From positions 1 through 53,441 of the forward strand of contig JAMCYG010000005.1 of the NCBI GenBank assembly GCA_023473425.1: a DNA stretch of 53,441 nucleotides, read 5' to 3'. This DNA comes from Candidatus Martarchaeota archaeon. Its GTDB lineage: Archaea; Micrarchaeota; Micrarchaeia; Micrarchaeales; Micrarchaeaceae. The notes beneath the pieces were generated by a model. The model did no database searches. It was not told the DNA's origin and was given only the letters and a program-made list of their open reading frames with translations. Positions 16,820-39,897 of the stretch are shown here, one piece after another; position 1 is the first letter of the stretch, and each line of letters opens with the position of its first letter. The translations under genes and the position numbers were made by a program.

Positions 16820-18886
16820 ATGCTTATGGGTAAAGTGCATTCGAAACGGCAGCAGTCCGCACTCGAATTTATAGTAACATACGCATGGGTACTGATAATC
16901 ATAGCCGTATTCCTTGGTGTTATATTCCTTGCATCGTATCTCAACAGGCCGTCTACATATTTGCCAACGACTTGCAACATACAACCATCATTCCCGTGCT
17001 CTCAGAGCTTGCTGTCATACAATTCCGTGACTACGCCTGTGTTCACTCTACTGTTCACAAACAATCTTGGGACGAGCGTGCTATTCGAATCCAACGCGAT
17101 AAATGTAACAATCACGAACGGCCCGGGAGCTTCCACTACGCTGCACTACGCAGGCAACTGCACACCCGCATTTGCGCCTGAAGGTACGCCAGTGGTCTGC
17201 CGGGCTCTTATGCCAAATGTATCTGCGCAGAGCGGCACCGAGTTCTCAACGTCATTCGGCTTGAACTATAAAGTTTGCAATGGTTTGGAGAAATCCTCAT
17301 GCGTATCTCCTTCTTATACTTCTACCGGGCAGTCGATACAGACGCTGCAGGAACTCTCATATACCCTTTACCTCCTAAATATTGCTACAAATCCACCTAC
17401 CGGCACCATATCCATAAACGGCTCAATATACAGAAACTCTACATCGATACTTCTCACGCAGGGCAACCACAGCGTATATGCAATACCTCCCAACGGATAC
17501 AGATTCAGCTCATGGAGCGTGAATTCCCCATCCGCTCTGACTAGCACAAGCTCGCAGAACGCAACATTGGACATGCTGTCTAACGCTACGCTTACTGCTA
17601 CATTCACGCTTATACCAATCACTTCTACAATACCTGTTACATCAACATCGACATCCACAACTTCTACATCCACTTCTACGACCACCTCGACCACTACATC
17701 TACAACAACTTCCACTACCACATCGACAACAACATCCACTACAACAACATCCACTACTACTTCTACTACTACCTCGACTACTACCTCTACCACTTCAACC
17801 TCCACTTCTACCACTTCAACATCTACTTCGACCACTACATCTACAACAACATCAACCACCACCTCTACGACTACATCCACGACAACCACTTCTACGACCA
17901 CTTCCACAACAACATCAACCACCACCTCTACGACTACATCCACGACAACCACTTCTACGACCACTTCCACAACAACCACTTCAACAACTACGTCTACGAC
18001 TACAACCTCAACAACGACAACTTCGACTACAACTCACACGACTACAACATCCACTATATCTTCTGATGGCAGCTGCTCTGTCTATGGCAATGCCAAAATA
18101 ACTCTGGCAAATGGAACATCCATCAATGCATCTGACGTCAAGTTCGGTGAAGAGATACTTTCATATAACACAAAGACCGGAAAGCTTACACCGTCAGTTG
18201 TGGTTGCCGTGTACACGCACAATACCACTAGCCAGTACATCTTCAACGGCAACCTGACAGTAGACAGTAACGAAGTCATGTTCATCAACGGCAATTGGTC
18301 TAAGGCGAGTACTGCAAAGGTTGGGGACTACTTGTTTAACCCACTCCTCAACAAGACCGTAGAAATAACTTCTATAAGCGTGAGTACGCTGAAGAGCAAT
18401 CATACTGTATATGACGTGCTTTCCCTTCCTTCGAACGATTTTATAGCTGATGGTTACTTGATTGATAGAGTGACGTCAACATGCAACTCCTTTGCAGGAA
18501 GCACATTCGTGTACACGCTGAGCGGCGCGGCCATTAAGGTATCAGATCTCAAACCTGGGCAGATGATTCTCGGATACAACAATAATACCAACACAATCGT
18601 GCCGGTTTCCGTAACAAGCGTATATCCGAGGCCGACCAACAACGAGATAATAATCAATAACGGCTCCTTGATAGTAGACGGCGGCGAACAGATGGAAATA
18701 AATGGGACTATGCAGTCTGCATCCAGCCTTAAGATAGGCGATGTGCTGTACGACCCGCTTACCCAGCAGAATGTGGTTGTGACTGCCCTCCAGTTGAAGA
18801 CCGGCAAGATAGGCACGTTCACGCTTTATGATGTGATAACATCCCCTGGATACAGCTTCATAGGGAATGGTTACGTAGTAACATGA
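16820..18886 (+). CDS. Giant pilin-like surface protein: class III signal peptide, Thr/Ser stalk, two Hint-like domains
   Basis: A 688-residue secreted protein. Residues 1-40 are a class III (type IV pilin-like) leader: basic KRQ, then QSALEF with Glu at +5 and a hydrophobic helix. Residues 40-190 are an extracellular domain with several cysteines. A small beta repeat of the InlB-B/Flg_new type follows (GTISINGSIY to ATFTLI). Residues 274-412 are almost pure Thr/Ser. Two tandem Hint-fold domains begin at Cys419 (CSVYGNAKITLANG) and near Cys555. Each has the DVKFGEEILSYN/LKPGQMILGYN, AKVGDYLFNP/LKIGDVLYDP and DFIADGYLID/SFIGNGYVVT blocks. The block B histidine (TxxH) is Glu485 in domain 1 and also Glu in domain 2; the terminal His-Asn is missing. 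Autoprocessing is therefore doubtful. ATG 16826 is an alternative start. Confidence 0.75.
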   Translation: MLMGKVHSKRQQSALEFIVTYAWVLIIIAVFLGVIFLASYLNRPSTYLPTTCNIQPSFPCSQSLLSYNSVTTPVFTLLFTNNLGTSVLFESNAINVTITNGPGASTTLHYAGNCTPAFAPEGTPVVCRALMPNVSAQSGTEFSTSFGLNYKVCNGLEKSSCVSPSYTSTGQSIQTLQELSYTLYLLNIATNPPTGTISINGSIYRNSTSILLTQGNHSVYAIPPNGYRFSSWSVNSPSALTSTSSQNATLDMLSNATLTATFTLIPITSTIPVTSTSTSTTSTSTSTTTSTTTSTTTSTTTSTTTSTTTTSTTTSTTTSTTTSTTSTSTSTTSTSTSTTTSTTTSTTTSTTTSTTTTSTTTSTTTSTTTSTTTSTTTTSTTTSTTTTSTTTSTTTTSTTTTSTTTHTTTTSTISSDGSCSVYGNAKITLANGTSINASDVKFGEEILSYNTKTGKLTPSVVVAVYTHNTTSQYIFNGNLTVDSNEVMFINGNWSKASTAKVGDYLFNPLLNKTVEITSISVSTLKSNHTVYDVLSLPSNDFIADGYLIDRVTSTCNSFAGSTFVYTLSGAAIKVSDLKPGQMILGYNNNTNTIVPVSVTSVYPRPTNNEIIINNGSLIVDGGEQMEINGTMQSASSLKIGDVLYDPLTQQNVVVTALQLKTGKIGTFTLYDVITSPGYSFIGNGYVVT
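17639..18056 (+). repeat. Thr/Ser-coding low-complexity tract with a perfect 63-bp tandem duplication
   Basis: About 420 bases of ACN/TCN codons encode the stalk of the pilin-Hint protein. Within it, 17843-17905 and 17906-17968 are identical 63-bp copies (21 codons). The strand is almost free of G, so the opposite strand reads as long Val-rich frames that are not genes. Confidence 0.9.
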
Positions 18887-18906: not shown

Positions 18907-19767
18907 ATGGATTATACACCGGATCAAAGTGGTTCTATAAATGTTCCGCAGCAAGGTATGGCTGCTCCACCGCAGGCTAAGGCCAATTCGCATGCAAAAG
19001 TGATAGTTTCAGCAGTAGTAATAGTTGCAGTCATACTTGGGATAATCGCATATATTACGCTGCATGGCTTGTCGAGTGCTCCACCAACCACTACTATCAC
19101 ATCCCAGACGACAAGCGCACCGACCACGGCTACTACCTCTTCCGTGACCACTTCTGCCACCACTACAATAATACCAATAAATGCGAGTACTATGGCAGTG
19201 GTAAGCAACATAGTAAACTCCAATGCATTAGTGCAGCAGCTACCGAACTCCAATTCACTCACTCTATACTACACAAACGACTCGCTCGGCATATTCACAC
19301 AGAACCTGACTGCCAAGTACAACCTTACCAATTCTACTAATCTATATTACATATTTGACAGGGAGTACGGTTTACCATTTACTGCCAATTATATAGCGTC
19401 CAACAACGTAACGCCCATAAATCAGACAATTCCAATTCCAGGCGAGTATGCGAATTATACCTATCCTGTAATGTTCATAGTGCATGCGGCTGCCCTCCAG
19501 AGCCCCCAGGCTGCAAAAGCCGCTGCGCTTTACCATACATACTGCGGATGCCTTGGCCCTACTGAGAAGGTAACTATGGTAGAATCGAACTCCACTTTCA
19601 CACTGTATCTTGCCAATGCAACTGTGAATGGAATGCAGTACTACGGTGCATTCTTTGCCTATAAGGACTTCTATTCTTCAATGATAACATTCGGAGTCCG
19701 CGGCAAGATGAACGCAACTTACTCTATAGGCTTGGCCAAATACTACTATTCGCTGCTGAAGAAATAG
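18907..19767 (+). CDS. Membrane-anchored secreted protein, cassette family A
   Basis: The 286-residue protein has a Pro/Gln-rich cytoplasmic tail (about 28 residues) and one transmembrane helix (about 31-52). A Thr-rich linker (TTTITSQTTSAPTTATTSS) and an extracellular domain rich in Asn, Tyr, Ser and N-x-S/T sequons follow. It shares a core (YGLPFTANY, then IPGEYANYTYPVMFIVHA) with the products at 35405 and 37106, so the three are paralogues. A CGC dicysteine occurs mid-domain. Function unknown. It lies 20 nt behind the pilin-Hint gene and 12 nt before the family B gene. The start ATG follows a GTGAT motif. Confidence 0.65.
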   Translation: MDYTPDQSGSINVPQQGMAAPPQAKANSHAKVIVSAVVIVAVILGIIAYITLHGLSSAPPTTTITSQTTSAPTTATTSSVTTSATTTIIPINASTMAVVSNIVNSNALVQQLPNSNSLTLYYTNDSLGIFTQNLTAKYNLTNSTNLYYIFDREYGLPFTANYIASNNVTPINQTIPIPGEYANYTYPVMFIVHAAALQSPQAAKAAALYHTYCGCLGPTEKVTMVESNSTFTLYLANATVNGMQYYGAFFAYKDFYSSMITFGVRGKMNATYSIGLAKYYYSLLKK

Positions 19768-19779
19768 CATGTGAGGCTC

Positions 19780-20436
19780 ATGGATAAGCGTAACAAGGCA
19801 ATTGCAGTTTACATTACGTCAGCAGCGGTAATAGCCGCGATACTGTTTATCATCGCATACTACTCTGGGCTAATTCACAGCGCTGCTGTTCAAAATATAA
19901 CCCTCCAGACTGTAGAGAACGTAGTGCCGCATGCAAACTACACCTTGATGAATAGCACCAGCGAAAACCTGACTGGCTATTTCAGCACGCAGGGCTACAG
20001 ACATATAATGGTATCAGAGTTCAATGCCTCTTCCAACGTGAAATACACTAGCTATCCGCAGTTCATAACCTCAATAATATATACTGCGAACAGCCCGGCG
20101 ACGGCAAAGAACATAGAAGAGAATTTCCTTCTAATCAACTTCTCGAGTTCATACACTCCAAATTCGATCAGCAGTCAGTATAGCTACCAGAAGTCATTCA
20201 ACTATTCCTACAAGAAAAACAATGTCATAATGTACAACGTCTATGACGTGGCAGTATCAAACCTCACATCCGTAACTACATATTCGGAGGAATACCCTAT
20301 ATTTCAGTACACTACAGTATTCGCATACGGCAACTACACTGTTTTTGTTGCTGAGGATGGTTATGGCGGTCTTAATGGGACCATCCCTGACTTGCTTGCC
20401 GAGAAGCTCTTTGCTGCTATTGTTTCTTCAAAATGA
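19780..20436 (+). CDS. Membrane-anchored secreted protein, cassette family B
   Basis: The 218-residue protein has a short basic N-terminus (MDKRNK), one hydrophobic helix (about 8-30) and a Tyr/Asn/Ser-rich extracellular domain with many sequons. The stretch YPIFQYTTVFAYGNYTVFV matches YMPDYQYTVLFAYGRY in the product at 36409, so the two are paralogues. Both occupy the third position of their cassette. No known family is recognised. The GTG at 19771 is in frame, but the ATG at 19780 is more likely. Confidence 0.62.
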   Translation: MDKRNKAIAVYITSAAVIAAILFIIAYYSGLIHSAAVQNITLQTVENVVPHANYTLMNSTSENLTGYFSTQGYRHIMVSEFNASSNVKYTSYPQFITSIIYTANSPATAKNIEENFLLINFSSSYTPNSISSQYSYQKSFNYSYKKNNVIMYNVYDVAVSNLTSVTTYSEEYPIFQYTTVFAYGNYTVFVAEDGYGGLNGTIPDLLAEKLFAAIVSSK

Positions 20437-20532: not shown

Positions 20533-20844
20533 TCAATCATTTTTGCCTGTCCATATTACAAAGCCGCTGTTTCTAAGCCATATGATGTCAGTAGCATTGC
20601 TGCCGGAAAAAAGGCACATATCCGCTCTGCAGATTGCTGCAAGAGTTGTATCAATGCACCCGACAGTGCAACTCTTACCCATTTGCGCCACGCTCGAATG
20701 AATTGCGGAAATTATCTCAAGAGATTGGTAAGTATTATATTCGCTGCTTATAACATTGCCATAATGCGATATTTTTGTAACTGCGGTTGATGTAACTGCC
20801 AGCACAATTATAGCTATGGCTATCCCGGCTCCGTATAGCGGCAC
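20533..20844 (-). CDS. Small pilin-like membrane protein
   Basis: The frame is open from 20883, but a GTG at 20844 is better placed. It follows the upstream stop by one base and has GGTGG (complement of 20850-20854) five bases ahead. The 103-residue product begins with a hydrophobic segment (PLYGAGIAIAIIVLAV), then a helix-like region and four cysteines (SCTVGC, ICRADMC). It is the last gene of the pilus-like operon. No family is recognised; the layout is that of a minor pseudopilin without an obvious processing site. Confidence 0.5.
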   Translation of the reverse strand: MPLYGAGIAIAIIVLAVTSTAVTKISHYGNVISSEYNTYQSLEIISAIHSSVAQMGKSCTVGCIDTTLAAICRADMCLFSGSNATDIIWLRNSGFVIWTGKND

Positions 20845-20845
20845 A

Positions 20846-21238
20846 TTATCCACCAACTGCGTATATGCATGAAACCGTATCATTGCGGAACACGAAGCAG
20901 TATGTTACCCTGCTGCTTCCCATAGCGCACGAGTTACTGCCTGACGAACTTGCATAGATTCCTTGATATTCATACTCCAGGCATCCTATCCCATATGCCC
21001 TGGCGATGTACCGCAACCATGCAGCTTCGCAGGAAGCGTCATTGGAAGTAAAGCAGTTTCCTATTGTTGCATTGTATCGCAGCAGCATTGGAAAATCATA
21101 TTCAAGGTTCGATATTGAAAGGCTTTCTACCCTATGTAGCGAAGAAGCATTGTATGTAACGTCAGTAAGCGCGCTTGCTGCACCTGCTATTATAATCACT
21201 GCTATGCCTGCTTCGATTACCCCCATCTGAGCCCTCAT
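20846..21238 (-). CDS. Minor pilin-like protein
   Basis: A 130-residue protein with MRAQMGVIEAGIAVIIIAGAASA at the N-terminus: basic residue, Gln, then a Glu at +5 or +6 and a hydrophobic helix, resembling a class III leader. The exported part has six cysteines, arranged so that pairs could form disulfides. GAGG lies upstream of the ATG, just after the stop of the 438-residue pilin. It is the penultimate gene of the operon. Confidence 0.55.
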   Translation of the reverse strand: MRAQMGVIEAGIAVIIIAGAASALTDVTYNASSLHRVESLSISNLEYDFPMLLRYNATIGNCFTSNDASCEAAWLRYIARAYGIGCLEYEYQGIYASSSGSNSCAMGSSRVTYCFVFRNDTVSCIYAVGG

Positions 21239-21247
21239 AAAATTGCC

Positions 21248-22564
21248 TCAGCCATTCACGTTTATTACAGTTCCTCGGTAGTTAACGCTATAAGTGTCTG
21301 CGCCATTACCCAAGACTGATGCATTTATCATATAATCAAGGTTGGAATATGGAGCGCATGCGTAATGCAGCATGCTACCCGTGTGTAACAGCGCGCATCC
21401 GCTAACGTAAGAGTAATTGGCTTCTTCAAATGCACTCGCCGCATGGTTATATGCACCTACTGCTTGCCATATCTGGTCTATTTGGTCTTGGGATACGCCT
21501 GTGTTATTGTAATAGGCAAGCGTATTGCGCATGCTTTCAAGTGTCTGCGAATATGCGTCAAATGTGCTTATGTTGACCGGTCCTGATCCCGAGCTGCTGT
21601 TCAGAACTATATAATTCGTATACGGCCGCGGCCCCTCTCCAGTTACGCCAGTCACGATAGCATTTCCTAAGGTTCTGTTACGATATGTCAGGTTTTCCTT
21701 CATATCATTCCGATTCAGGACTCCACTCATTGACACAGACGAGTTGTAGAGGCGTAGCGTAATATTGTAAGCGTAGCTCTTGCTGCTTGCAATTTCGTAA
21801 TAGCTATATGTGGTATTTGTTGGGTAGACGCAGTAAACCCTGTAAAGGTCGCCATTAGTATAGCACACGTCATCGAATATCCAGAAGTCCCATGCTTTGC
21901 TGGTACCGCATTGCACGCTCACCGGATACGGCTGATACCAGAAGTTTTGGTATAGGCAGTGGTTGGACACTCTTGTCCCCATCACGCTGCTCCTGTCTGT
22001 AAGATTATAAAATATACTCTGGTTCCCGTATGTGATAGCCGCGTCAAGCTCTTTCCCTCCAGTCACATTTTTCGTGGCACTGCCGTTCATCGCGACTGAG
22101 AAGGCGTATACGTGCGTAATATTATCGAAGGAAAGGTTTTCATAGGTCGCATTCACCTCCAAGCCTATGCCGATTGGGCCCTGAGCATGTGGGAGTATCA
22201 TGAATTCGAAATCGCCTATTCCCTGGGATGTAAGGTTGAAGAAGCCTGCTGGCTCCACTGTCGCATTTTCGGAACTAGCTGTAATGGAGCGTATGCTCGC
22301 GCCCGGAGGTAATGAGACCACGACGTTAAGCGGATTTGTAGCGTTCTGGTATATCCTGCTTTCTAGCGAGGCATAGACATACATTTTGGCCGGCAGAACG
22401 TAGTTTCCTCCAGAACTGGCGCTGCTATTCGAAATGTTTGATATATCTTCAAGAGCCGATCTCTGATATGACGCCTGATGCATGTACAGTGCCGCGCTTG
22501 CAGCGACGAGAGAAACTATTCCAGACAATATTACAACAAATTCTATGGAAGCCTGGGCCTTAAT
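21248..22564 (-). CDS. Large pilin-like protein with class III leader, probable ATT start
   Basis: No ATG, GTG or TTG lies at the right place. The first conventional start (TTG, 22528) falls inside the hydrophobic helix. Upstream in the same frame the sequence reads I-K-A-Q-A-S-I-E-F-V-V-I-L, an ideal class III signal with Glu at +5. It would begin at an ATT (22564-22562) preceded by GGTGAT four bases earlier. From there the product is 438 residues: leader, N-terminal helix, then a long Asn/Ser/Tyr-rich extracellular part with many sequons and a cysteine cluster (YCVYP, CAPYSNL). A sequencing error or true ATT initiation could both explain it. It is the largest pilin of the operon and possibly an adhesin-type tip. 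Confidence 0.6.
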   Translation of the reverse strand: MKAQASIEFVVILSGIVSLVAASAALYMHQASYQRSALEDISNISNSSASSGGNYVLPAKMYVYASLESRIYQNATNPLNVVVSLPPGASIRSITASSENATVEPAGFFNLTSQGIGDFEFMILPHAQGPIGIGLEVNATYENLSFDNITHVYAFSVAMNGSATKNVTGGKELDAAITYGNQSIFYNLTDRSSVMGTRVSNHCLYQNFWYQPYPVSVQCGTSKAWDFWIFDDVCYTNGDLYRVYCVYPTNTTYSYYEIASSKSYAYNITLRLYNSSVSMSGVLNRNDMKENLTYRNRTLGNAIVTGVTGEGPRPYTNYIVLNSSSGSGPVNISTFDAYSQTLESMRNTLAYYNNTGVSQDQIDQIWQAVGAYNHAASAFEEANYSYVSGCALLHTGSMLHYACAPYSNLDYMINASVLGNGADTYSVNYRGTVINVNG

Positions 22565-22568
22565 AAAA

Positions 22569-22916
22569 TCACCTTCCGACTATTTCATATATTTTTCCGT
22601 CCAGGACTGCGAGCCTGCCTGCACGGTTCTGTATCGAGACCGGCAGCAACGACATATTAACTTGTACCAGCGTATAGTCATACGCCTTCATTGCGGAAAT
22701 GAAGGAGGAATTATTAATGCCGTTGTTGTATTTGAGCAGAAGCAGATTCTGAAGATACGTGCTAGAATTAAGCAGGTTGAGCCCCTCCAGCTCATAGGCA
22801 GAAACAGTTTTTATTCCGATGTTATACTCGTACATAAAGTACACGGTAGCTGTACTTATCAACGATATCGCAATAAGCGTGTCAAGTCCTATTACAAAAC
22901 CTCTCTTGCTTTTCAT
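22569..22916 (-). CDS. Pilin-like single-span protein
   Basis: The 115-residue protein starts MKSKRGFVIGLDTLIAISLISTATVYF, a pattern common in archaeal pilin-type proteins with KRGF and an Asp/Glu near +5. One transmembrane helix is followed by an 80-residue extracellular part ending KIYEIVGR. Its stop overlaps the ribosome-binding site of the downstream gene. No close family is named. Confidence 0.55.
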   Translation of the reverse strand: MKSKRGFVIGLDTLIAISLISTATVYFMYEYNIGIKTVSAYELEGLNLLNSSTYLQNLLLLKYNNGINNSSFISAMKAYDYTLVQVNMSLLPVSIQNRAGRLAVLDGKIYEIVGR

Positions 22917-22920
22917 GCAA

Positions 22921-23127
22921 TCATCTCAGGAATATCCCGTATTTGCTGTAAATACCGAGGCTCGCATTAAGCTGGCTGACAGATTCAGAATAATATGCTC
23001 GCGCATCATTAAACGCGTGCGAGGTGCTTGAACTCATGCCTGCGAGTGTAAGCGCTGTAGAAACGAACATCGCTATGGCGATTGCGATCTCTATAATAAA
23101 TCCCACAGAGAGTTGCCCCTTTATCAT
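22921..23127 (-). CDS. Very small pilin-like protein
   Basis: The 68-residue protein reads MIKGQLSVGFIIEIAIAIAMFVSTALTLAG: a KG-Q processing-like site, then a hydrophobic helix with Glu displaced to about +10. A short Ser/Tyr-rich tail follows. Its ATG overlaps the previous stop (ATGA), and the next gene starts four bases after its own stop. It looks like a minor subunit of the same pilus. Confidence 0.55.
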   Translation of the reverse strand: MIKGQLSVGFIIEIAIAIAMFVSTALTLAGMSSSTSHAFNDARAYYSESVSQLNASLGIYSKYGIFLR

Positions 23128-23480
23128 CTAACCACTGAAAGCACGAAAGTTCCATTCCAAGCCATCGTCATCCTGATGGTTCTTATTGCCCCGGCAGACC
23201 CGCACAAGCTGTTGCTCAGCTCGACCTGCGCATCAAACGCTGTGCTGTGCTGCATTTGGACCGCTCCGCAAACGCCGTTGGGTACAAATACCCGGAACGT
23301 GCTGTTTGTATACTCGATATTGGCGTTGACCGAAGAGATAAATGTAATCAGCTCTGCGTTGCTTTCCATGCTGCTATATCTTGCCCCTACTGCCAAATAG
23401 GCAGTAATAGCACTGAACAGTGCCGCTATCGATATTGCTGCATAGACGGTGAACTCCAAAGATGCCTGTGCCTTCATCAT
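23124..23480 (-). CDS. Archaeal pilin with class III signal peptide
   Basis: The 118-residue protein begins MMKAQASLEFTVYAAISIAALFSAI: KA-QASLEF is a textbook class III site with Glu at +5. The exported domain is beta-rich with two cysteines (GVCGAVQ, SLCGSAG) likely to form a disulfide. AGGT lies upstream of the ATG. It is probably a structural or minor pilin processed by the prepilin peptidase encoded at 38914-39795. Confidence 0.7.
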   Translation of the reverse strand: MMKAQASLEFTVYAAISIAALFSAITAYLAVGARYSSMESNAELITFISSVNANIEYTNSTFRVFVPNGVCGAVQMQHSTAFDAQVELSNSLCGSAGAIRTIRMTMAWNGTFVLSVVR

Positions 23481-23491
23481 ATTGGTACCTT

Positions 23492-23728
23492 TTAACTACT
23501 AAGGTTGGAAAGTTGGTGCGTGAGTTCTGTCATCACACTCGAATTCGTTCCATTCACCATCGCATGGATTGCAGCACCCTTTAGTTGTGTCATCATAGCA
23601 AGTGCGATCACTATGACGATGCTTACTGCCGAGAGCATCATAACATACTCTATTGAGCCCTGGCCCTTTGCTGCCCTTGCCATGAGCAGCAAGGTCCTTA
23701 TTACGTCAGTTAAAGGCATATATTCCAT
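23492..23728 (-). CDS. Archaeal pilin, probable major subunit
   Basis: The 78-residue protein has a 22-residue leader ending AAKG, then QGSIEYVMMLSAVSIVIVIALAMM, the strongest pilin signature in the operon. After the helix only about 30 polar residues remain. The size is typical of short filament-forming archaeal pilins. GGTGAT precedes the ATG. It is the first pilin after the two platform proteins. Confidence 0.72.
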   Translation of the reverse strand: MEYMPLTDVIRTLLLMARAAKGQGSIEYVMMLSAVSIVIVIALAMMTQLKGAAIHAMVNGTNSSVMTELTHQLSNLSS

Positions 23729-23736
23729 ACCATCAC

Positions 23737-24510
23737 CTAAATCATACTTATTGAGATAAGAGATACTGCTCTCATTATCAGCAATCCTGTGAGAGAAGCT
23801 AGCACAGACTTGTAATGTGCTGTTATATTGTTCGATGGTAAGATGCTGAAACTATAGTAATTGCTTACAATTATGAAGAACGCAAATAGCAATTCAACGC
23901 CACTGCTAGCTGCTTGTGTAAGACCGGCGAATGAGCCAAGTATTCCGATGCCCACACCCGCAAATGCGGGGAAGAATATTATGGAACCCATTGAGGATAT
24001 CAGCACAGAGCCGCTCATCAAGGCGTCGGCCTTGTGAATGAGCCCCATCGAAGCGTTTTTGCCTCCGCTACCTTCTTCAAGGAAACTGTCAGCTGGCGAA
24101 CCGGTTGAGATCGTACTCATAAGCAGTCCGGCGAGCGGTTTAAGCCTCTTTGGTCCAGAGTCCATCATTTCTTCGAACGAGTATTCCAAATCTGATGACA
24201 TTCTGTATTTGCATATTGCGTTGCTGAGTTTGTTGCTGAAAGAGAGCCCTGGGGAGTTAGCTTTGGCTAACGATGTGATCAGTGGATGCCCCATCCTAAG
24301 CTCGGTAATCAAGCCTTCGGTGAGCACATACATATCCTTATTTATGCGACCTTCTGCTTCCCTGCCCCTGTGCGCCGCGAATATTATTGCGCTCATCGCG
24401 CCAGTTGCGGCTGCCAGATAAATACTTGATAATGCAGCCTCAAGTATTGATGCTATGCCAAGCACGAACCCTATTCGGATGGTTATGTCATACTTTTTCA
24501 TGCATCTCAT
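23737..24510 (-). CDS. Type IV pilus platform protein, TadC-like (T2SSF family)
   Basis: The 257-residue protein has a cytoplasmic helical region between hydrophobic segments. ITELRMGHPLITSLAKA and LEYSFEEMMDSGPKRLKPLAGLLMSTISTGSPADSFLEEG are typical of T2SSF/TadC domains. Three to four membrane helices are predicted. It should form the inner-membrane platform with the preceding TadB-like protein and be driven by the ATPase. Its start overlaps the TadB-like gene by 23 nt; ATG at 24501 is an alternative. Confidence 0.7.
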   Translation of the reverse strand: MRCMKKYDITIRIGFVLGIASILEAALSSIYLAAATGAMSAIIFAAHRGREAEGRINKDMYVLTEGLITELRMGHPLITSLAKANSPGLSFSNKLSNAICKYRMSSDLEYSFEEMMDSGPKRLKPLAGLLMSTISTGSPADSFLEEGSGGKNASMGLIHKADALMSGSVLISSMGSIIFFPAFAGVGIGILGSFAGLTQAASSGVELLFAFFIIVSNYYSFSILPSNNITAHYKSVLASLTGLLIMRAVSLISISMI

Positions 24511-25195
24511 CCATCTTTGACCTGATTACCTTGGTAACAAAGGGCAATGCCGCTCCAAAAGCAGTCACCAATGCAATGCCTGCGATAGCTCCATTCGACA
24601 TCATAGAATAGCCAACAAACCCAAAGATTACGAAAGAGGGTACAACTGCCCCTACTGCCATGTTTATAGATGCGTATCTTTGGAGAGAACCCATGGCTTC
24701 CTCCTTCCCTTTCTGGGCGTCAATCTCCGCGTTCATGTGGGTTTCCCTCACTGCCGTCATGCTGTCAGTTCTACCTACCATTTCCCCCAGTCTGCTAATA
24801 GCAGCGTATCTACTCCCATCAGCCACGAAGCCTGAACGAAATGCATCCTGCAGGCCGTACCCGAGCGCCATCATTTCACGTATATCATTTAGCCTGCTTG
24901 CAAGGTGCACATCATATTTTGTCATGAGTTTTATGACGCTTCTGATGCTGGGGGCTATCCCTTTTCCTGTGTGCTCCATTGTCTCCTTGACTATTTTGAG
25001 CATCATGTAAGATGCTGAAGCGGCCATGCGCGACTGCCTGTTTTGCAGTAATATCCTATCATATTCTATGGACGCTAGTGCGAAGGCCGCGAAGACTGGG
25101 ACAGTTAGCAATGCCATGGCTCCCAATGCCATAAACGAAAGCGCTGCGCCGGCAGCATATATGAGCGCGTCAGCCGCATATGCATATGCATTCAT
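24488..25195 (-). CDS. Type IV pilus platform protein, TadB-like (T2SSF family)
   Basis: The 235-residue protein has N-terminal hydrophobic helices, a cytoplasmic T2SSF region (IREMMALGYGLQDAFRSGF and RYAAISRLGEMVGRTDSMTAVRE) and a C-terminal pair of membrane helices. It begins with a 4-nt ATGA overlap with the ATPase stop. Many archaea encode one long FlaJ/ArlJ-like platform protein; here the function appears split between two single-domain proteins, as in bacterial Tad systems. Confidence 0.7.
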   Translation of the reverse strand: MNAYAYAADALIYAAGAALSFMALGAMALLTVPVFAAFALASIEYDRILLQNRQSRMAASASYMMLKIVKETMEHTGKGIAPSIRSVIKLMTKYDVHLASRLNDIREMMALGYGLQDAFRSGFVADGSRYAAISRLGEMVGRTDSMTAVRETHMNAEIDAQKGKEEAMGSLQRYASINMAVGAVVPSFVIFGFVGYSMMSNGAIAGIALVTAFGAALPFVTKVIRSKMDEMHEKV

Positions 25196-26694
25196 TTTAT
25201 GTCACCATATGAGGCGACTACTTCGGATATTCCCTGCTTTGAAATGTCCAAAGAAATACTCCTTAGAAAGGCAACACGCCTCTTGAACTCCTTCAGTGCC
25301 AACTTTCCGCTTATCAGCTCGCTTTTCGAATACAATTCCAGAGCTTTGGATTGCTTTACAGCACTCTCTTCCAGTGCACCGTCCTGCGATATGGTAGATA
25401 TCTTGTACTCTGCGCCGTCATCCATACTTATCTCGCTCCTTGAGAGCCAGCGGTATTCAGATATGCCGCTAATCTTTCTCTTGCTCAGGCCCTCGGTCCG
25501 CATGAAAACTGCAACATCAAGCATAGAAATAGACTGAGGCTCGACCGACATAGGCTTTGACTGGAGCCTGTTTATCAGCGCCTTGCCGTCTGTGGAGCTG
25601 TGCATTGTGGTCATGAACGGGACGCCGAGGTTTGCGCCTGAGAAGACGCTGGCCGTTTCTCCTCCTCTTATTTCACCTACAATCAATCTATCTGGCCTCA
25701 AGTGCAGTGCATTAATTATCTGGTCCCCTACCGTCACTTTTGCGTTGCCAGCAGAACCCTGAAGCGGCACAGAGTTCATGAAATTTGAATAATACCTGAG
25801 TTCGTCTACCTCCTCTTCTATCGTTATTATCCTCTGGTACCTTGGCACGAAGCAGCTGAGCGCTAGCAGTAGTGTTGTCTTTCCCGAAGACGGTGCTCCT
25901 GATACGACTATATTGCAGCCCGTCTCTATCGCCATCCAGAGGTATGCCAATTCCTCTGCGCTTACGCTGCCGCTGCTCATCATATTTCTTATGTCCGTGA
26001 ACTTGCTGCCAGAAAGCCTTATGGATGCAGCGGCCCCCCTTGTTGCATATGGTGCTCCCTGCGCGTGGATTCTCGATCCGTCTGCAAACTGCGCGTCTAT
26101 TATCGGCGTATTACTGTTCAGCTCCTTGTCAACATCTTCCAATAACCTGTTTATGGCGTATCTGAAGCCCCCTTCGTCCCTGAACTTCATGTTCGTTTTG
26201 CAATAGCCGTACTTGGAATGGTATACGCCTATGTTGTCGTTTGGGGCGTTTACAACTATCTCCTCTATATTCTTTTTGTCCTCCATCAGCATGCTGAACG
26301 GCCCGTATCCAAATATATCATGCCTAAGTATGTACAGCATTATGGCCCTTTTCGCCTCGGGGTAATCGGTGAGCACGCCTGCAAGCTCTTCCTCCGCAAT
26401 TCTGTCTTCGCGGAAATTTTCCCCTAATCCTCTGCCCACAACCTTCTCTATTATCCTGCCTTTCTCAAGCTCCATACGCGCGATGTCATTGCTGCCAATC
26501 TCCAATGAATCGATGAAGTAGACAAAGTCCCTGCCTTCCTTGCCTATCGCAGAATACTTTCCCTCTCTTTCGATTACCTCACCGGGGAAATCACGGGTGA
26601 GCTCAAATGTCAGCCTTACCCTTCTCTCCTGCTTTTCATGCGTGGGATTGCCATCAACAGCGTGCAGCAGCCCGAACATCTTTGATAGCTTCAT
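25192..26694 (-). CDS. Type IV pilus/Tad-type secretion ATPase (VirB11/TadA family)
   Basis: The 500-residue protein has the Walker A motif GAPSSGKT (266-273), Asp-box TIEEE (291-295) and Walker B RLIVGEIRG (336-344). A His-box TTMHSSTDG and an N-terminal domain (HDIFGYGPFSMLMED) are typical of archaeal PilB/TadA-like ATPases. It powers assembly of the pilins encoded downstream. The frame stays open to 26943, but the extra N-terminal residues are unlike the family and lie upstream of the promoter, so MKLSKMFG at 26694 is taken as the start. It heads an operon of ten genes on the minus strand. Confidence 0.85.
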   Translation of the reverse strand: MKLSKMFGLLHAVDGNPTHEKQERRVRLTFELTRDFPGEVIEREGKYSAIGKEGRDFVYFIDSLEIGSNDIARMELEKGRIIEKVVGRGLGENFREDRIAEEELAGVLTDYPEAKRAIMLYILRHDIFGYGPFSMLMEDKKNIEEIVVNAPNDNIGVYHSKYGYCKTNMKFRDEGGFRYAINRLLEDVDKELNSNTPIIDAQFADGSRIHAQGAPYATRGAAASIRLSGSKFTDIRNMMSSGSVSAEELAYLWMAIETGCNIVVSGAPSSGKTTLLLALSCFVPRYQRIITIEEEVDELRYYSNFMNSVPLQGSAGNAKVTVGDQIINALHLRPDRLIVGEIRGGETASVFSGANLGVPFMTTMHSSTDGKALINRLQSKPMSVEPQSISMLDVAVFMRTEGLSKRKISGISEYRWLSRSEISMDDGAEYKISTISQDGALEESAVKQSKALELYSKSELISGKLALKEFKRRVAFLRSISLDISKQGISEVVASYGDIK

Positions 26695-26739
26695 AGAAAT
26701 ACCATTTACACAAATAAATGAACTTATACTAAAATAAAA

Positions 26740-26748
26740 ATATATATA
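26740..26748 (-). promoter_or_regulatory. TATA box of the pilus-like operon
   Basis: Read on the minus strand the site is AAGG-TATATATA, a good BRE/TATA pair about 50 nt before the ATPase ATG. The 184-base gap between the ATPase and the winged-helix gene is a divergent promoter region. Confidence 0.55.
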
Positions 26749-26847
26749 CCTTTGTATTTGAAAATGAAGCTTGCTAGATAGCGGCGCGCCTTGGACTTGT
26801 TTGCCATATCTTTTATCAGGATAGCAAAAGCGGGATAAGCGAAAAGG

Positions 26848-26855
26848 TTTATATA
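26848..26855 (+). promoter_or_regulatory. TATA box of the winged-helix regulator gene
   Basis: AAAAGG-TTTATATA lies about 25-30 nt before the ATG at 26879, so the mRNA is probably leaderless. Confidence 0.55.
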
Positions 26856-26878
26856 TCTTGTATCGCAATGAGTAAACT

Positions 26879-27205
26879 ATGACAAAGAAGAACATTGAGA
26901 CTGATGAGATATGGGCTCTTAGGAAGATGCTCACAAGGCCCAATTATGCGGTTGTAGAGCTGCTACTCAGGAAGTCGCCTAGGACTACAAGGGAACTATA
27001 TTCTCTTCTTGAAAAGAAGTTTACTAGGAAGACACTCATACTTACACTTAGGGAACTGGCCCTGGATCTCAATGTCATACAGCCTACACATATAAGGACA
27101 GACAAAGGGTACGGTTTAGGCTACAGGCTCAATCCAAGAGTAAAAGACATAGTCAAGAACGTGCAGAAGTACTCAAAGATAATAGAGAGCATAAGGAAAG
27201 TGTAG
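26879..27205 (+). CDS. Winged-helix DNA-binding protein
   Basis: The 108-residue, strongly basic protein has a winged-helix layout: ALRKMLTRPNYAVVELLLRKSPRTTRELYSLLEKKFTRKTLILTLRELALDL, then a beta-wing (HIRTDKGYGLGYRL) and a C-terminal helix that could dimerise. It resembles small archaeal ArsR/MarR/HxlR-type regulators, though no exact family is claimed. It is divergent from the pilus-like ATPase operon and shares its 184-base promoter region, so it is a candidate regulator of that operon. Confidence 0.65.
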   Translation: MTKKNIETDEIWALRKMLTRPNYAVVELLLRKSPRTTRELYSLLEKKFTRKTLILTLRELALDLNVIQPTHIRTDKGYGLGYRLNPRVKDIVKNVQKYSKIIESIRKV

Positions 27206-32303: not shown

Positions 32304-35300
32304 ATGTCTCGAAACCGGGCCCAAGCAGCTATGGAGTATCTGATTACGTATGGTTGGGCCATACTAATAGTAGCCATCGCGGCAACCCTGCTTTTCTTCT
32401 ACGTTGCAGCTCCAAGGGTGCTACCTCCATCTACATGTAGTTTCGTCACAGGCGCTTACTGTAACTCACTGGTTTTCGGCACGAATTCGGTTACTCACAA
32501 TACCATCATAGCTTTCTTCATAACGAATACCAAATCAGTGCCGATTGAGAACCCTATGCTGGTCATAAACATAAACAAGGCAAACACGACCTCATATGCG
32601 TGCAAGCCTAGCTACGTGGCTCCTGGTGGATCAATAATATGCCAGACACCGTACCTTCCTGGAATAACCTCAAATTACGGGGAGCTCTATTTCGGGAATA
32701 TATATCTCAGTGCACAAGCGTGCACAGGGACCAACCCTTCAGCACCCTGTGCAACGACCTCTAGCCAGACTTATGCTGGCAGTTACAATGCGCATGTCGA
32801 ACCTTTAGTGTCGACCAATTCAACGATAACGCTTACTGCAAAGAATTCAACCCAAGCGGCGGATGGGAGCATAGACCCCTTGTACGCTCATGTAACCCTG
32901 CTGGGATATCCGCTAAAGGGAGCTACGGTCAACTTTACAGAGAACAATACCGCTTATACAATAAGCCCTAACGTTACTACTTCATCTACGAATGGGACTG
33001 CTCTCAGCGGAGTATTTGGAACAGTTTCAGGAAACACTCTGATAACCGCAACGTATGCAGGTTATACCTCAAGTGTTTCGGTAACATTTGTGCAGCCTGC
33101 ATATGTATCATTCAATATCAGCAACTACTACGACTGCGCATACTCTGCCATAATAGCGCACATAGGGGGTAACTCGTATACGTGCGCTCAGCTTAGCAGC
33201 GCACCAATCGGCTTTGTACCTGGGTCTTCCCACTGGTTCAATTTCACAGTTCCTGTTGATGTGCCTGAGTATCCGTCATTCGTGAGAAACAATTACAACT
33301 ATATGACTGTCAACTCAGTCCAGTACACCACAACAAACACACTATTGACTATTCCGTCAAACGAGACATTATCTATAGATTATAACACGCAGTACATGTT
33401 GTTCCTGAATGCGACGCCTAGTGTTGGTGGAACTGTCTCGCCTGCAGGGACCGGCTGGTATGGCCCTGGCTCCTCTGTTACCATATCAGAGTCGCCGAAT
33501 TCCGGTTATGCATTCTATGGATGGATATGCCGCGGCACCGGCTGCTACAACGGCATTGCAGCCACTACTAACGTGATACTAAATAACCCGATAAATGAGA
33601 CTGCAGTGTTTACCTCATCGACAACAACATCCACTACTACCTCTACAACCACATCTACAACAACATCGACAACGACGTCTACAACGACCTCTACAACCAC
33701 ATCGACAACAACATCAACCACCACCACTTCTACTACTACATCGACAACAACATCAACCACGACCTCTACAACTACATCCACGACAACCACTTCTACGACC
33801 ACTTCTACTACTACATCGACAACAGTATCAACCACTTCGACCTCTACAACCACAATACAGTACTGCTGGGGATACCAAGATTATGGGACTGGAGGCACCC
33901 TGTTGACTGCGGGTTGCGGAGCCAGTGGTGACACGGTAAACTTTTGTGCAGGTGGCGCTTACGGTCCGGGCATAGATAACCCGACATGGACATCAGACAC
34001 TAATGAAAACTGTGGCTCTGGAGCAAATGAATGCTCGACCAATGTTGGACACAACAATCACCAGTATTGCAATTTCACAGTAGCAAATCCGGCAATTTCA
34101 CCTTCAGGAATAGTGGGCGCAGAGGGAGCGAATGCGAGCTCTTACGAATCCCACTACGCATCAACCTCAGTGTACGGCACGAGCGGCACGTACAGCGGCT
34201 CTGTCAGTATAAGCTACAGCATACCTTCCACCTACAATCAGGCATTGGTAGAAATCATAGGCGCATGCGGCAATTCAGGTTATTGCACTAAACTCAATTC
34301 AAACTGCGGCAGCAATCAACTACTATCAAATACTAGCACTTATGGGTCGATTGGTGGCGGAATAGCTGAGGCTGCATGCTACTTGAGCCCGGGATCCTAT
34401 TCAGCAACGCTTTACTATAGTAATCCAGGGGCAACATACACTACATTCGGTTCGCTTGGAGTATACGTGTTCGTATCCACAACATCGACAACGACGTCTA
34501 CAACGACCTCTACAACCACATCTACATCAACTACATCCACATCAACGACATCTACTTCGACCACGACACATACAACTACGACAATAACTGGTGGTGGCGG
34601 TACTTCGGTCTATGGGAATGCTTCCATAACCCTTGCAAACGGCTCTACAATCTTGGCAAGCAAGGTGACACCAGGCACTATAATACTTTCATATAACCTC
34701 GAGACGCACAAGCTTGAGCCTTCTCTTGTGTCTTATGTGCATGTTCAAAAGGCAAATAATACCTACACTTTCAACAACAATCTTCAGGTGGATATGAACG
34801 AGATCATGCTGATAAACGGCACATGGCAGCGCGCATCTGCCGCCAAGGTAGGCGACTATCTGTTCAATCCTCTTACCGGCAAGAACGTAACCATAACCTC
34901 GATAGGGGTTAGCAACACCGGAGGCAGGGTTTATGACTTTATAGGCACCCCTGTTAACAACTACATAGCCAACGGCTTCCTTATAGACAAGGATTCAACT
35001 ATAGTTTATGGCGATGGCGCTTCAAGCGTTACTGGAAATGATACAATAACACTGGCGAACGGCACCACGGAGCCTGTTTCCAGCCTTACAGTAGGGACTA
35101 TTGTCATGTCATACAGTCTTGCTCTGAAGAAATTCGTCCCGTCAATAGTTGTTTCGATCAAACATGTGAAATCCAGCAACATGTACCTCATAAATAACAA
35201 CTTGCTCATAGACGGCGGGGAAGACATGATAATCAACGGGTCTAACCAGCCTGCAAGTATGGCAAAGGTCGGGGATACAATGATAGGTTCCAATGGCAAC

Positions 35301-35408
35301 ACGATATTAATCACTTCTGTGAAAAGTATAAAAGGCATAGACAACACATATGACATAAATACCGCGCCGGTCGACACGTTCTTAGTCAACGGATACGTGA
35401 TATCATGA
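32304..35408 (+). CDS. Giant pilin-like surface protein with two Thr/Ser tracts and two Hint-like domains (paralogue)
   Basis: The 1034-residue protein has a classic archaeal class III leader (RA-QAAMEYLITYGWAILIV). A pilin-like N-terminal domain with cysteines follows, then a Big_1-like Ig domain (TLTAKNSTQAADGSIDPLYAHVTLLG region). Next come an InlB-B/Flg_new-type repeat (GGTVSPAGTGWYGPGSSVTI to NETAVF), a Thr/Ser stalk, a Cys-rich domain, a second shorter Thr/Ser tract and two Hint-like domains. These begin at Thr767 (TSVYGNASITLANG) and Ser907 (SSVTGNDTITLANG), the positions of Cys419 in the first paralogue. As there, Glu replaces the block B His, and no C-terminal His-Asn is present. AGGT precedes the ATG. 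The next gene overlaps its stop. Confidence 0.75.
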   Translation: MSRNRAQAAMEYLITYGWAILIVAIAATLLFFYVAAPRVLPPSTCSFVTGAYCNSLVFGTNSVTHNTIIAFFITNTKSVPIENPMLVININKANTTSYACKPSYVAPGGSIICQTPYLPGITSNYGELYFGNIYLSAQACTGTNPSAPCATTSSQTYAGSYNAHVEPLVSTNSTITLTAKNSTQAADGSIDPLYAHVTLLGYPLKGATVNFTENNTAYTISPNVTTSSTNGTALSGVFGTVSGNTLITATYAGYTSSVSVTFVQPAYVSFNISNYYDCAYSAIIAHIGGNSYTCAQLSSAPIGFVPGSSHWFNFTVPVDVPEYPSFVRNNYNYMTVNSVQYTTTNTLLTIPSNETLSIDYNTQYMLFLNATPSVGGTVSPAGTGWYGPGSSVTISESPNSGYAFYGWICRGTGCYNGIAATTNVILNNPINETAVFTSSTTTSTTTSTTTSTTTSTTTSTTTSTTTSTTTSTTTTSTTTSTTTSTTTSTTTSTTTTSTTTSTTTSTTVSTTSTSTTTIQYCWGYQDYGTGGTLLTAGCGASGDTVNFCAGGAYGPGIDNPTWTSDTNENCGSGANECSTNVGHNNHQYCNFTVANPAISPSGIVGAEGANASSYESHYASTSVYGTSGTYSGSVSISYSIPSTYNQALVEIIGACGNSGYCTKLNSNCGSNQLLSNTSTYGSIGGGIAEAACYLSPGSYSATLYYSNPGATYTTFGSLGVYVFVSTTSTTTSTTTSTTTSTSTTSTSTTSTSTTTHTTTTITGGGGTSVYGNASITLANGSTILASKVTPGTIILSYNLETHKLEPSLVSYVHVQKANNTYTFNNNLQVDMNEIMLINGTWQRASAAKVGDYLFNPLTGKNVTITSIGVSNTGGRVYDFIGTPVNNYIANGFLIDKDSTIVYGDGASSVTGNDTITLANGTTEPVSSLTVGTIVMSYSLALKKFVPSIVVSIKHVKSSNMYLINNNLLIDGGEDMIINGSNQPASMAKVGDTMIGSNGNTILITSVKSIKGIDNTYDINTAPVDTFLVNGYVIS
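33612..33857 (+). repeat. Thr/Ser-coding low-complexity tract 1 of the second pilin-Hint gene
   Basis: About 245 bases of ACN/TCN codons. Part of it (around 33743-33810) is nearly identical to the 63-bp unit duplicated in the first cassette, which suggests exchange between the loci. Confidence 0.85.
34477..34587 (+). repeat. Thr/Ser-coding low-complexity tract 2 of the second pilin-Hint gene
   Basis: About 110 bases of ACN/TCN codons linking the Cys-rich domain to the Hint-like domains. Its first half repeats a stretch of tract 1 (near 33662-33705) exactly, which suggests internal duplication. Confidence 0.8.
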
Positions 35409-36364
35409 TAAGCATGGCTGATGGCTCTTATGGGCCGCAAGGCACGCCTCCGCAGCCTGGAGGAGAGGCTCCAACGGCACCATCCGCTCCACAGCAAACG
35501 CAGTATTCATGGAAGGCAGGGGCATCACCCTCTTCGAAGGGCAGGTCATGGGTGCACATACTTGCTGCCTTAGCTATAGTCATAGTGGCCGTTGCAGTGC
35601 TCACGTACTATTTTGGCGGGCGGCTGCCACATCCTGGTACTTCTACCACCACTACTATCCAATCCACAGTTCCAAAAACTATCCCCGGGGCTCCAAACAC
35701 CCCTATATCAAACTTCACACCAGGAATGTCTGTTAATGGTATATTCCAAAGGCAGAATATAGCGTATAGTGCACCTGGCACCTCTAACTTAAGCGTTGAA
35801 AGCGCATATAGCGTTTCGAACGAGACATACAGCAACAGCACATATACCTACTATTACGCTGGATATGGAATGAACTTCACTTCAGTCATACTTAATAGCA
35901 GCAGCATATATCTCAATCCCGCATACGGTGTGCCGATACCTGCCAAATACGCCAACTACAGTGGTCCTGTCGCCGCAAGCATTACACTTACAGAATTCAA
36001 TAACGTGAGCGACATGCGCTCAGCATACAAAGCATTCTTCTACCCGACGAACGTGTCGGATTATGTATCATATTCGGCAGATGGAAAGGAGCTGGGCATA
36101 TCGCAAACAGTAGTGCCGGGCGCATATACATACTTTTACAAGCACGGCGCACCGCTAATGCTTAATGGCAGTACATCTATTGATAATCTGACAATAGGAT
36201 CAATCAGCATCAGCAGGATATACGGCAACTTCTCCATGTACCAGACAGAGTTCCCATATGGGCGCTACATAGTAATACTGCAGCAGTACGGCATAAGCGG
36301 GTCCTACAACGAATCCTATGGCAATGCAAGCGCAGAGCACCTCTTTGGGCTGCTTTACAGCTAA
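35405..36364 (+). CDS. Membrane-anchored secreted protein, cassette family A (paralogue)
   Basis: The 319-residue protein has a Pro/Gln/Gly-rich cytoplasmic tail (GTPPQPGGEAPTAPSAPQQTQ), a transmembrane helix (about 50-72) and a short Thr-rich linker. The extracellular domain shares the core YGVPIPAKYANYSGPV with the product at 18907. Its ATG overlaps the pilin-Hint stop by 4 nt; ATG 35414 is an alternative. A late stretch (FPYGRYIVILQQYGISG) also resembles family B, so A and B may be distant relatives. Confidence 0.65.
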   Translation: MISMADGSYGPQGTPPQPGGEAPTAPSAPQQTQYSWKAGASPSSKGRSWVHILAALAIVIVAVAVLTYYFGGRLPHPGTSTTTTIQSTVPKTIPGAPNTPISNFTPGMSVNGIFQRQNIAYSAPGTSNLSVESAYSVSNETYSNSTYTYYYAGYGMNFTSVILNSSSIYLNPAYGVPIPAKYANYSGPVAASITLTEFNNVSDMRSAYKAFFYPTNVSDYVSYSADGKELGISQTVVPGAYTYFYKHGAPLMLNGSTSIDNLTIGSISISRIYGNFSMYQTEFPYGRYIVILQQYGISGSYNESYGNASAEHLFGLLYS

Positions 36365-36408
36365 GCTGGCTTATCTTATATCGGATTAGAATATTGTGAG
36401 GTGTGGAG

Positions 36409-37089
36409 ATGGAGGGAGTGAAGCGCAGTGTCACAAAATATATAGCACTAATAATCGTTGTTTCGTTAGCCCTGGCTCTTGTCGCACTTTACGCCAATGG
36501 CTTAAGGCACCATGCAAATAGGGCAGTGATTACGAACCTTAGTCTGAGCGACATAATCAGCGTGCTGGGCAACTCAAATTACGTCGCCCTCAAGTCGAAC
36601 AGCATATACATCTATAACAAGGAAATATCTTATCTCGACGGCTATAATGAAAGCTCTGTCTCGCTGTTTAATTACACTGGCAATGACTCTGCCGGCAATC
36701 CAGACGTCATAACACTTGAAGTATCCTTGATGTCAAACTCCACAACCGCCAATACTGCCCTTCAGTCGATGCTGTACAGCAACAACCAGAATCAGTCGAT
36801 ATCTGGGCAAGTATATTCTGGCGGAACAGTCGACAATTATACCTACAATGGCACTGAAATCCATTTTTACATAATAAACTCAGTTGCAGTGTTCAATTTC
36901 ACGCCGAACCAGGTCCTCAACAGCACATTCTACATGCCTGACTACCAGTACACTGTCCTGTTCGCATACGGCAGATACCTTGGCACCGTAGTAGTAAACG
37001 GCTATTCAGCATCACCTGCCTATCAAAAAGATGCCGTGAATCTCTCTAAGGCACTGTTAGGAAAGTTGCAATCCGCCCTAAAAGCGTGA
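36409..37089 (+). CDS. Membrane-anchored secreted protein, cassette family B (paralogue)
   Basis: The 226-residue protein has a basic N-terminus, one transmembrane helix (about 8-28) and an extracellular domain rich in Asn/Ser/Tyr with many sequons. YMPDYQYTVLFAYGRYLGTVVV matches the product at 19780. The frame is open from a GTG at 36403, but GAGGTG at 36398-36403 is an excellent ribosome-binding site for the ATG at 36409. Function unknown. Confidence 0.62.
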   Translation: MEGVKRSVTKYIALIIVVSLALALVALYANGLRHHANRAVITNLSLSDIISVLGNSNYVALKSNSIYIYNKEISYLDGYNESSVSLFNYTGNDSAGNPDVITLEVSLMSNSTTANTALQSMLYSNNQNQSISGQVYSGGTVDNYTYNGTEIHFYIINSVAVFNFTPNQVLNSTFYMPDYQYTVLFAYGRYLGTVVVNGYSASPAYQKDAVNLSKALLGKLQSALKA

Positions 37090-37900: not shown

Positions 37901-37970
37901 ACTTTTATGGGATAATAGGAATAAATAACAATCCGTTAGCGCATTCGGGAATATATTACTGTGCATAAGG

Positions 37971-37978
37971 TATAAATA
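37971..37978 (+). promoter_or_regulatory. TATA box of the HTH regulator gene
   Basis: AAGG-TATAAATA lies 22-29 nt before the ATG at 38000, indicating a leaderless transcript. The region 37901-37999 is divergent with the family A relative. Confidence 0.5.
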
Positions 37979-37999
37979 AATCCGCGACAAATATCAAAC

Positions 38000-39795: not shown

Positions 39796-39897
39796 AGTTT
39801 TTACCTCAGCAAGAAGAGATATCTGAACAAAACAATTAATAGATATCGCCACTAAACAGGTTAGTATGCGGAAGCGATATGAAAGTGGTAAGGTAGC

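What the first reader, a model, noticed from the sequence alone, without database searches (positions are those of the whole stretch)
16820..18886. Pilin-like surface protein with a Thr/Ser stalk and two tandem degenerate Hint domains
Hint domains normally splice or self-cleave (inteins, hedgehog, BIL domains). Here two in tandem form the C-terminal end of a class III signal-peptide protein, outside the cell. Each keeps the Hint block order and starts at or near a Cys (419, 555). Glu replaces the block B histidine in both, and the C-terminal His-Asn is gone. Either the fold was reused as an inert adhesive or assembly module, or it uses different residues for thioester or cleavage chemistry. 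I know of no described archaeal pilin with this architecture.
Basis: partly seen in the sequence, partly recalled or inferred. Interest (0 to 1): 0.9.

Follow-up and report, generated by a model that had tools for sequence, protein, structure and literature searches.

The report
Pilin tipped with rewired Hint domains
Tiny archaea (Micrarchaeota) carry a family of pilus proteins whose outer end is made of one or two copies of the protein-splicing (Hint) fold; the parts needed for splicing are gone and the old active site has been rebuilt with a fixed new set of residues, so a cutting machine seems to have become a surface module, possibly one with different chemistry.

Summary
The ORF (16820-18886, 688 aa) and its two C-terminal Hint domains are real. 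Structure prediction plus Foldseek gives intein-like (BIL) domains and inteins as best matches, and a family profile hits BIL and intein structures by sequence. About 30 of 301 genomes of the phylum encode such pilins, all in the window's order. The Cys nucleophile reading is wrong here: position 1 is Ser (S420, S557); C419 and C555 lie just outside and look like a disulfide pair. Across the family position 1 is Ser or Cys, block B TxxH has become DxxE, the penultimate His has become Asp, and the C-terminal Asn is lost. The new residues are among the most conserved in the domain. Best reading: an extracellular, glycosylated, non-splicing Hint module at the distal end of a pilin, working with its two cassette partners. 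Still open: a Ser/Glu variant of the N-terminal acyl shift. I found no described equivalent. New variant of a known kind.

The parts
16820..18886 (+). Hint pilin 1, 688 aa: pilin-like N-terminus, InlB-like repeat, Ser/Thr stalk, Hint d1, Hint d2
16850..16940 (+). pilin-like (class III type) signal and hydrophobic segment KRQQSALEFIVTYAWVLIIIAVFLG
   Evidence: sequence; paralogue matches PF04021 weakly, E 0.083
17417..17614 (+). divergent InlB B-repeat domain (Flg_new_2)
   Evidence: Pfam E 1.3e-10, above cut-off
17639..18034 (+). Ser/Thr stalk, pure S/T run of residues 274-405
18062..18466 (+). Hint domain d1; rebuilt site S420, D482, E485, D549
18473..18883 (+). Hint domain d2; S557, D620, E623; protein ends where the His-Asn would stand
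18074..18076 (+). Cys419, position -1 of d1; probable disulfide partner of Cys555
   Evidence: co-occurrence
18482..18484 (+). Cys555 in the d1-d2 linker; probable disulfide partner of Cys419
   Evidence: co-occurrence
18907..19767 (+). cassette gene g2: single-pass membrane protein with ectodomain
   Evidence: synteny
19771..20436 (+). cassette gene g3: single-pass membrane protein with ectodomain, related to g2
32304..35408 (+). Hint pilin 2 (paralogue), 1034 aa: Big_1, InlB-like repeat, two S/T runs, tandem Hint 34590-35405
35405..36364 (+). g2 of the second cassette, overlapping the pilin stop (ATGA)
36403..37089 (+). g3 of the second cassette
20533..26943 (-). type IV pilus locus: T2SSE ATPase (25192-26943), two TadC-like membrane proteins (no Pfam match), small pilin with class III motif (23492-23728), minor-pilin-like ORFs
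   Evidence: PF00437 E 8e-23; PF04021 E 4e-4
38914..39852 (-). prepilin peptidase-like protein, the only Peptidase_A24 match in the genome (below the curated cut-off)
   Evidence: E 5e-5

Best explanation
This is a large pilin-like surface protein (minor pilin or tip adhesin) of a type IV pilus system in a Micrarchaeota archaeon. Its extracellular C-terminus is a shared Hint module, here duplicated as d1-d2. The module no longer splices or releases its C-terminus. The former active site has been rebuilt with an invariant Ser(Cys)1, Asp, Glu and Asp set and now serves as a structural or binding pocket. In part of the family the ends of d1 are probably stapled by a disulfide, here C419-C555. The module is the constant end of otherwise variable pilins and most likely docks to the cassette's two membrane-anchored partner proteins (g2, g3) and/or to a surface ligand on a neighbouring or host cell. 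Shown: fold, family, residue replacements, cassette, glycosylation-motif enrichment. Inferred: extracellular assembly into a pilus, the disulfide, docking to g2/g3, adhesion.
For: Fold: single-domain model pLDDT 87.2 (five models 84-87), Foldseek 6TMM/6Y75 E about 1e-9, TM 0.80-0.82; 2LWY TM 0.82-0.84. Profile A2 hits 6TMM at E 1e-10 and 2LWY at 1e-7. Lost chemistry: ungapped alignment with a canonical Hint of the same phylum (L098) maps T to D482, H to E485, penultimate H to D549, terminal N to R550; over 24 d1 domains the terminal-Asn position shows K/R/V/A/T/L/F among its listed residues and no N, and the complete d2 domains end one residue earlier. Rebuilt site: E485 ranks 8th, D482 10th, S420 17th among conserved columns over 63 domains, kept through clades d1, d2 and ii. 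Extracellular: class III pilin N-termini across the family, N-glycosylation motifs 213 against 122 +/- 10 in shuffles, low charge. Shared end: in one genome two different pilins have 96% identical Hint DNA with unrelated sequence upstream. Cassette: Hint pilin-g2-g3 in most loci whose contig reaches far enough; among 61 genomes full g3 occurs only in Hint-pilin carriers (Fisher 6e-7). Pilus context: T2SSE ATPase in the window and in all 12 carrier genomes checked. Cys before d1 and in the d1-d2 linker occur together: 7 of 7, against 1 of 9.
Against: Position 1 is Ser or Cys in nearly every domain and in many d1 domains follows Gly; an inert module would not need a nucleophile there. No partner interaction is tested. 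The tandem arrangement in the model is unreliable (models 39-81 pLDDT). Pilus assembly is inferred from the N-terminus and neighbourhood only. The Cys co-occurrence reflects only three changes on the tree.
Confidence: 0.6

Rival explanations
1. The Hint domains still carry out the first step of Hint chemistry in altered form: Ser1 (or Cys1) attacks the preceding peptide bond, helped by Glu485/Asp482 in place of His/Thr, giving an ester that is cleaved or transferred to an acceptor, so that the pilin stalk is released or attached. The His-to-Glu change would resemble that from subtilisins (Ser-His-Asp) to acid-active sedolisins (Ser-Glu-Asp) and would fit an acidic habitat.
For: Position 1 is S in 24/24 d1 and C in 7/7 type iii domains; Gly at -1 in 14/24 d1 and 7/7 type iii; DxxE invariant in d1 and type ii. 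Ser1 or Cys1 and a C-terminal Asn/Gln/Asp are the only residues common to all class 1 inteins, and inteins without block B His exist (PMC7664689; PMC6333167). The closest solved fold, BIL2, forms isopeptide bonds (PMC8616854). Cultured relatives are acidophiles (PMC5864196).
Against: Four canonical catalytic positions have changed. The -1 residue of d2 is not conserved. A C419-C555 disulfide would hold the pieces together. No intact Hint pilin was found in the phylum. The habitat of this genome is unknown to me; the sedolisin parallel is from memory.
Confidence: 0.22
2. The Asp/Glu/Asp/Ser cluster is a metal site (for instance Ca2+ or another divalent ion) that rigidifies the module or triggers adhesion.
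For: Three invariant acidic residues and a Ser at positions that meet in the Hint active site, in a domain otherwise poor in charge. BIL2 binds Zn near its active site.
Against: No metal-ligand geometry could be measured; d2 has Thr/Ser instead of the fourth residue, Asp549; at low pH carboxylates bind metals poorly.
Confidence: 0.1
3. Plain decay: the Hint domains are relics of an intein-like element and have no function.
For: Canonical catalytic residues are gone.
Against: Two families of the order keep the module, d1 and d2 descend from one old duplication, the pocket residues are among the most conserved, reading frames are intact and the cassette is kept.
Confidence: 0.04

Closest known systems
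BIL2 domain of the Tetrahymena BUBL1 locus (6TMM, 6Y75)
   Same: Closest solved fold (E about 1e-9, TM 0.8) and best profile hit
   Different: BIL2 has Cys1, block B His69 and terminal Asn143 and forms isopeptide bonds; here Ser1, Glu, no terminal Asn
Bacterial intein-like domain of Clostridium thermocellum (2LWY)
   Same: Fold (TM 0.82-0.84), sequence profile E 1e-7
   Different: Catalytic residues replaced; no C-terminal flank
Class 1 inteins with Ser1, and the few without block B His (e.g. Tko CDC21-1)
   Same: Hint fold, Ser allowed at position 1, block B His dispensable in a few
   Different: Those keep the C-terminal Asn/Gln/Asp and a +1 nucleophile; here absent, and the domain is at the very C-terminus
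Hedgehog C-terminal (Hog) domain
   Same: C-terminal Hint module behind variable secreted N-parts; Gly before position 1 is common
   Different: Hog keeps Cys1 and TxxH and carries a sterol-recognition part; here none
Modular type IV pilins such as PilB of Streptococcus sanguinis
   Same: Pilin N-terminus with an added adhesive module (PMC8179133, abstract)
   Different: Module there is not Hint; here archaeal, with S/T stalk and two cognate membrane partners

Membership tests
Hint superfamily | Horseshoe Hint fold | tested here: met
Hint superfamily | Sequence profile relation to known Hint proteins | tested here: met
   (E 1e-10); single-sequence Pfam below cut-off
Class 1 intein | Cys or Ser at position 1 | tested here: met
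   S420, S557; S/C across the family
Class 1 intein | Block B TxxH | tested here: not met
   DxxE
Class 1 intein | C-terminal His-Asn and +1 nucleophile, with a host protein on both sides | tested here: not met
   d2 ends the protein
BIL domain | Cys1, TxxH and terminal Asn for cleavage, variable flanks | tested here: not met
BIL domain | Autocleavage activity | not testable with these tools
   needs protein
Hedgehog (Hog) | Cys1, TxxH, sterol-recognition extension | tested here: not met
Type IV pilin-like protein | Class III signal peptide and hydrophobic N-helix | tested here: inconclusive
   QSALEF/QAAMEY motif in nearly all homologues with complete N-terminus; PF04021 below cut-off
Type IV pilin-like protein | Prepilin peptidase and assembly ATPase in the same genome | tested here: met
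   (peptidase below curated cut-off)
Type IV pilin-like protein | Assembly into a filament | not testable with these tools
   needs microscopy or proteomics

The most novel reading that the evidence does not exclude
A Ser/Glu/Asp Hint: an extracellular Hint domain in which a Ser1 nucleophile and a DxxE motif replace Cys1 and TxxH, giving self-cleavage or ester/amide transfer at low pH, and thereby attaching or releasing a pilin stalk. It would be the Hint counterpart of the subtilisin-to-sedolisin change.
Probability: 0.15. Interest if true: 0.92.

Novelty: new variant of a known kind. Interest (0 to 1): 0.68.

Why it matters
Nearly all described Hint domains are self-processing. A whole lineage-specific family in which the splicing residues are replaced by another fixed set, at the outer end of pilins of episymbiotic archaea, shows either reuse of the fold as a surface module or a new way to run its chemistry. 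Cells of this group are seen touching their Thermoplasmatales hosts by pili-like structures (PMC5864196, PMC5498576), and the molecules involved are unknown; this cassette gives named candidates that can be tested.

Tried and rejected
Cys419/Cys555 as nucleophiles: rejected by alignment to canonical Hints and by the co-occurrence pattern. Chance low-complexity similarity: rejected by fold and profile. A one-off or assembly artefact: rejected, since 54 near-complete domains come from about 30 genomes. Identifying g2 and g3: no Pfam or PDB relative, only that they are related to each other and to the type iii partners. Habitat of the genome: not found; the TL2-1 bin could not be traced. Linkage to the pilus ATPase as a general rule: close in the window and about 5 kb in G267, but loose or absent elsewhere. 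The phylogeny-aware test of the Cys pair has too few events. Literature: no paper found on Hint domains in archaeal pilins.

Full report
What is there. The ORF 16820-18886 (+) encodes 688 aa: a pilin-like N-terminus (KRQQSALEFIVTYAWVLIIIAVFLG), an ectodomain, a divergent InlB B-repeat domain (Flg_new_2, E 1.3e-10), a stalk of Ser and Thr only for 132 residues, and two domains of about 135 residues at the C-terminus. A search of the window's own genome found a paralogue in the same window, 32304-35408 (1034 aa), with the same order plus a Big_1 Ig-like match and a second Ser/Thr run. The four domains align over their whole length.

Are they Hint domains? Single sequences give only sub-threshold Pfam hits. 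A profile of 25 family members hits PDB chains of Hint proteins: BIL2 of Tetrahymena (E 1e-10), C. thermocellum BIL (1e-7), several inteins. Individual members match Hint-type Pfam models most often (PT-HINT and Intein_splicing, 10 of 25 each). AlphaFold2 on d1 with four relatives gives pLDDT 87.2 and pTM 0.78, with all five models at 84-87; Foldseek returns only Hint proteins at the top: 6TMM/6Y75 E about 1e-9, 2LWY TM 0.82-0.84, inteins, Hedgehog. The tandem model gives the same hits, but its domain arrangement is not trustworthy.

Family. Searches found matches in 38 of 301 genomes of the phylum; eight of these are ordinary inteins or canonical Hints, leaving about 30 genomes with Hint pilins, all in the two families of the window's order. 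The named relative is Candidatus Micrarchaeota TL2-1.bin30 (L004). Nearly all homologues with a complete N-terminus carry the class III type pilin motif, and the Hint module is always at the C-terminus. A tree gives clades d1 (95), d2 (84), single type ii (92), single type iii (100), with canonical Hints outside (98). So d1 and d2 come from one duplication older than the split of the two families; some genes later lost d2.

Active site. Alignment with the canonical Hint L098 of the same phylum is ungapped through block B (YIFNGNLTVDSNEVMFINGNWSKASTAKVGDYLF / YIINDKIRATGEHPFFVNGKWIKADNLRVGMKLF) and block G. Position 1 is Ser420 (d2: Ser557), Thr becomes Asp482, His becomes Glu485, the penultimate His becomes Asp549, and the terminal Asn position is Arg550, variable in the family; d2 ends one residue before it. 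Over 63 domains position 1 is Ser or Cys apart from two or three divergent d2 copies; D482 and E485 are invariant in d1 and type ii; D549 is D in d1 and nearly all of ii and iii, and Thr/Ser (one Gly) in d2. Type iii has Cys1 after GGG and TPxDQP in block B. The pocket has not drifted; it has been reset. Splicing and C-terminal cleavage as known cannot work; an N-terminal acyl shift cannot be excluded.

The Cys pair. No Hint domain of the family holds a Cys apart from Cys1 of type iii. Among tandem proteins a Cys just before d1 goes with a Cys in the d1-d2 linker in 7 of 7, and of nine without the first, eight lack the second and one (L071) has two in the linker (Fisher 0.0014). The single-domain L077 has one before and one after its Hint. 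The N- and C-ends of a Hint lie side by side (established for the fold), so I infer a disulfide staple (C419-C555). On the tree this rests on three changes, so it is suggestive only.

Surroundings. Each Hint pilin is followed by g2 and g3, single-pass membrane proteins with about 200-residue ectodomains, in most loci whose contig reaches far enough; type iii pilins have their own versions. g2 and g3 are related to each other (hhalign E 3e-7) and to nothing in Pfam or the PDB. Among 61 genomes, full g3 is found only in genomes with a Hint pilin, though the profile was built from such loci. Between the two cassettes lies a type IV pilus locus: T2SSE ATPase, two TadC-like proteins (my reading; no Pfam match), small pilins; the only prepilin peptidase match of the genome follows at 38914-39852. 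All 12 carrier genomes checked have T2SSE ATPases, usually not next to the cassette.

Location and role. N-glycosylation motifs are 1.7 times more frequent in the Hint domains than in shuffled copies (213 against 122 +/- 10; related sequences, so the spread is understated), and charge is low, as expected for an exposed archaeal surface domain. In genome G011 two different pilins carry 96% identical Hint DNA that stops at the domain border; in G214 a tandem and a single pilin share 90%. The Hint module is thus the constant part and the rest is variable. That speaks for a common partner or processing step rather than a variable ligand site, and the cassette genes are the obvious candidates.

Verdict on mechanism. 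I judge a non-splicing structural/docking module most likely (0.6), an altered N-terminal acyl shift with Ser1/Glu second (0.22). The second is worth an experiment, because the only residues kept in kind are the nucleophile and, often, Gly before it, and because inteins without block B His are known (PMC6333167, PMC7664689). The parallel with sedolisins is from my own knowledge and is a lead, not a test.

Limits.

Noticed in passing
L094 4113-7055, L095 4169-5797, L096 4031-5734, L097 3899-6610: Release factor aRF1 genes of four Micrarchaeota genomes carry inteins directly after the catalytic GGQ motif (..HKGGQ|C..HN|S..), two of them long inteins and two mini-inteins. One paper search found no report.
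   Followed up: partly
L093 968-3667 (-): A secreted or membrane protein begins with a signal-like segment followed by two canonical tandem Hint domains (Cys1, TAEHP, HN) joined by poly-Gly: an apparently intact extracellular Hint pair in another lineage of the class.
   Followed up: partly
L098 1568-1570: An in-frame TGA stands between the Gly-rich end of a surface-like ORF and a canonical Hint domain (STGG-TGA-GCFLKGT); sequencing error, point mutation or read-through.
   Followed up: no
L031 8256-8640 and L032 10154-10538: Two contigs of one genome end inside near-identical Hint sequence of two different pilins, and several other contigs in the set also end inside a Hint domain: Hint modules seem recently homogenised and break assemblies.
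   Followed up: partly
window 29066-32011 (-): 981-aa protein with an N-terminal transmembrane segment and NosD/right-handed beta-helix ectodomain between the pilus locus and the second cassette.
   Followed up: no
window 37109-37990 (-): A third g2-like membrane protein facing the second cassette (phmmer to g2b E 2e-9).
   Followed up: partly
L092 1042-2901, L099 984-2945: Inteins in SufB-like and Mrp-like ATPase genes of Micrarchaeota.
   Followed up: no
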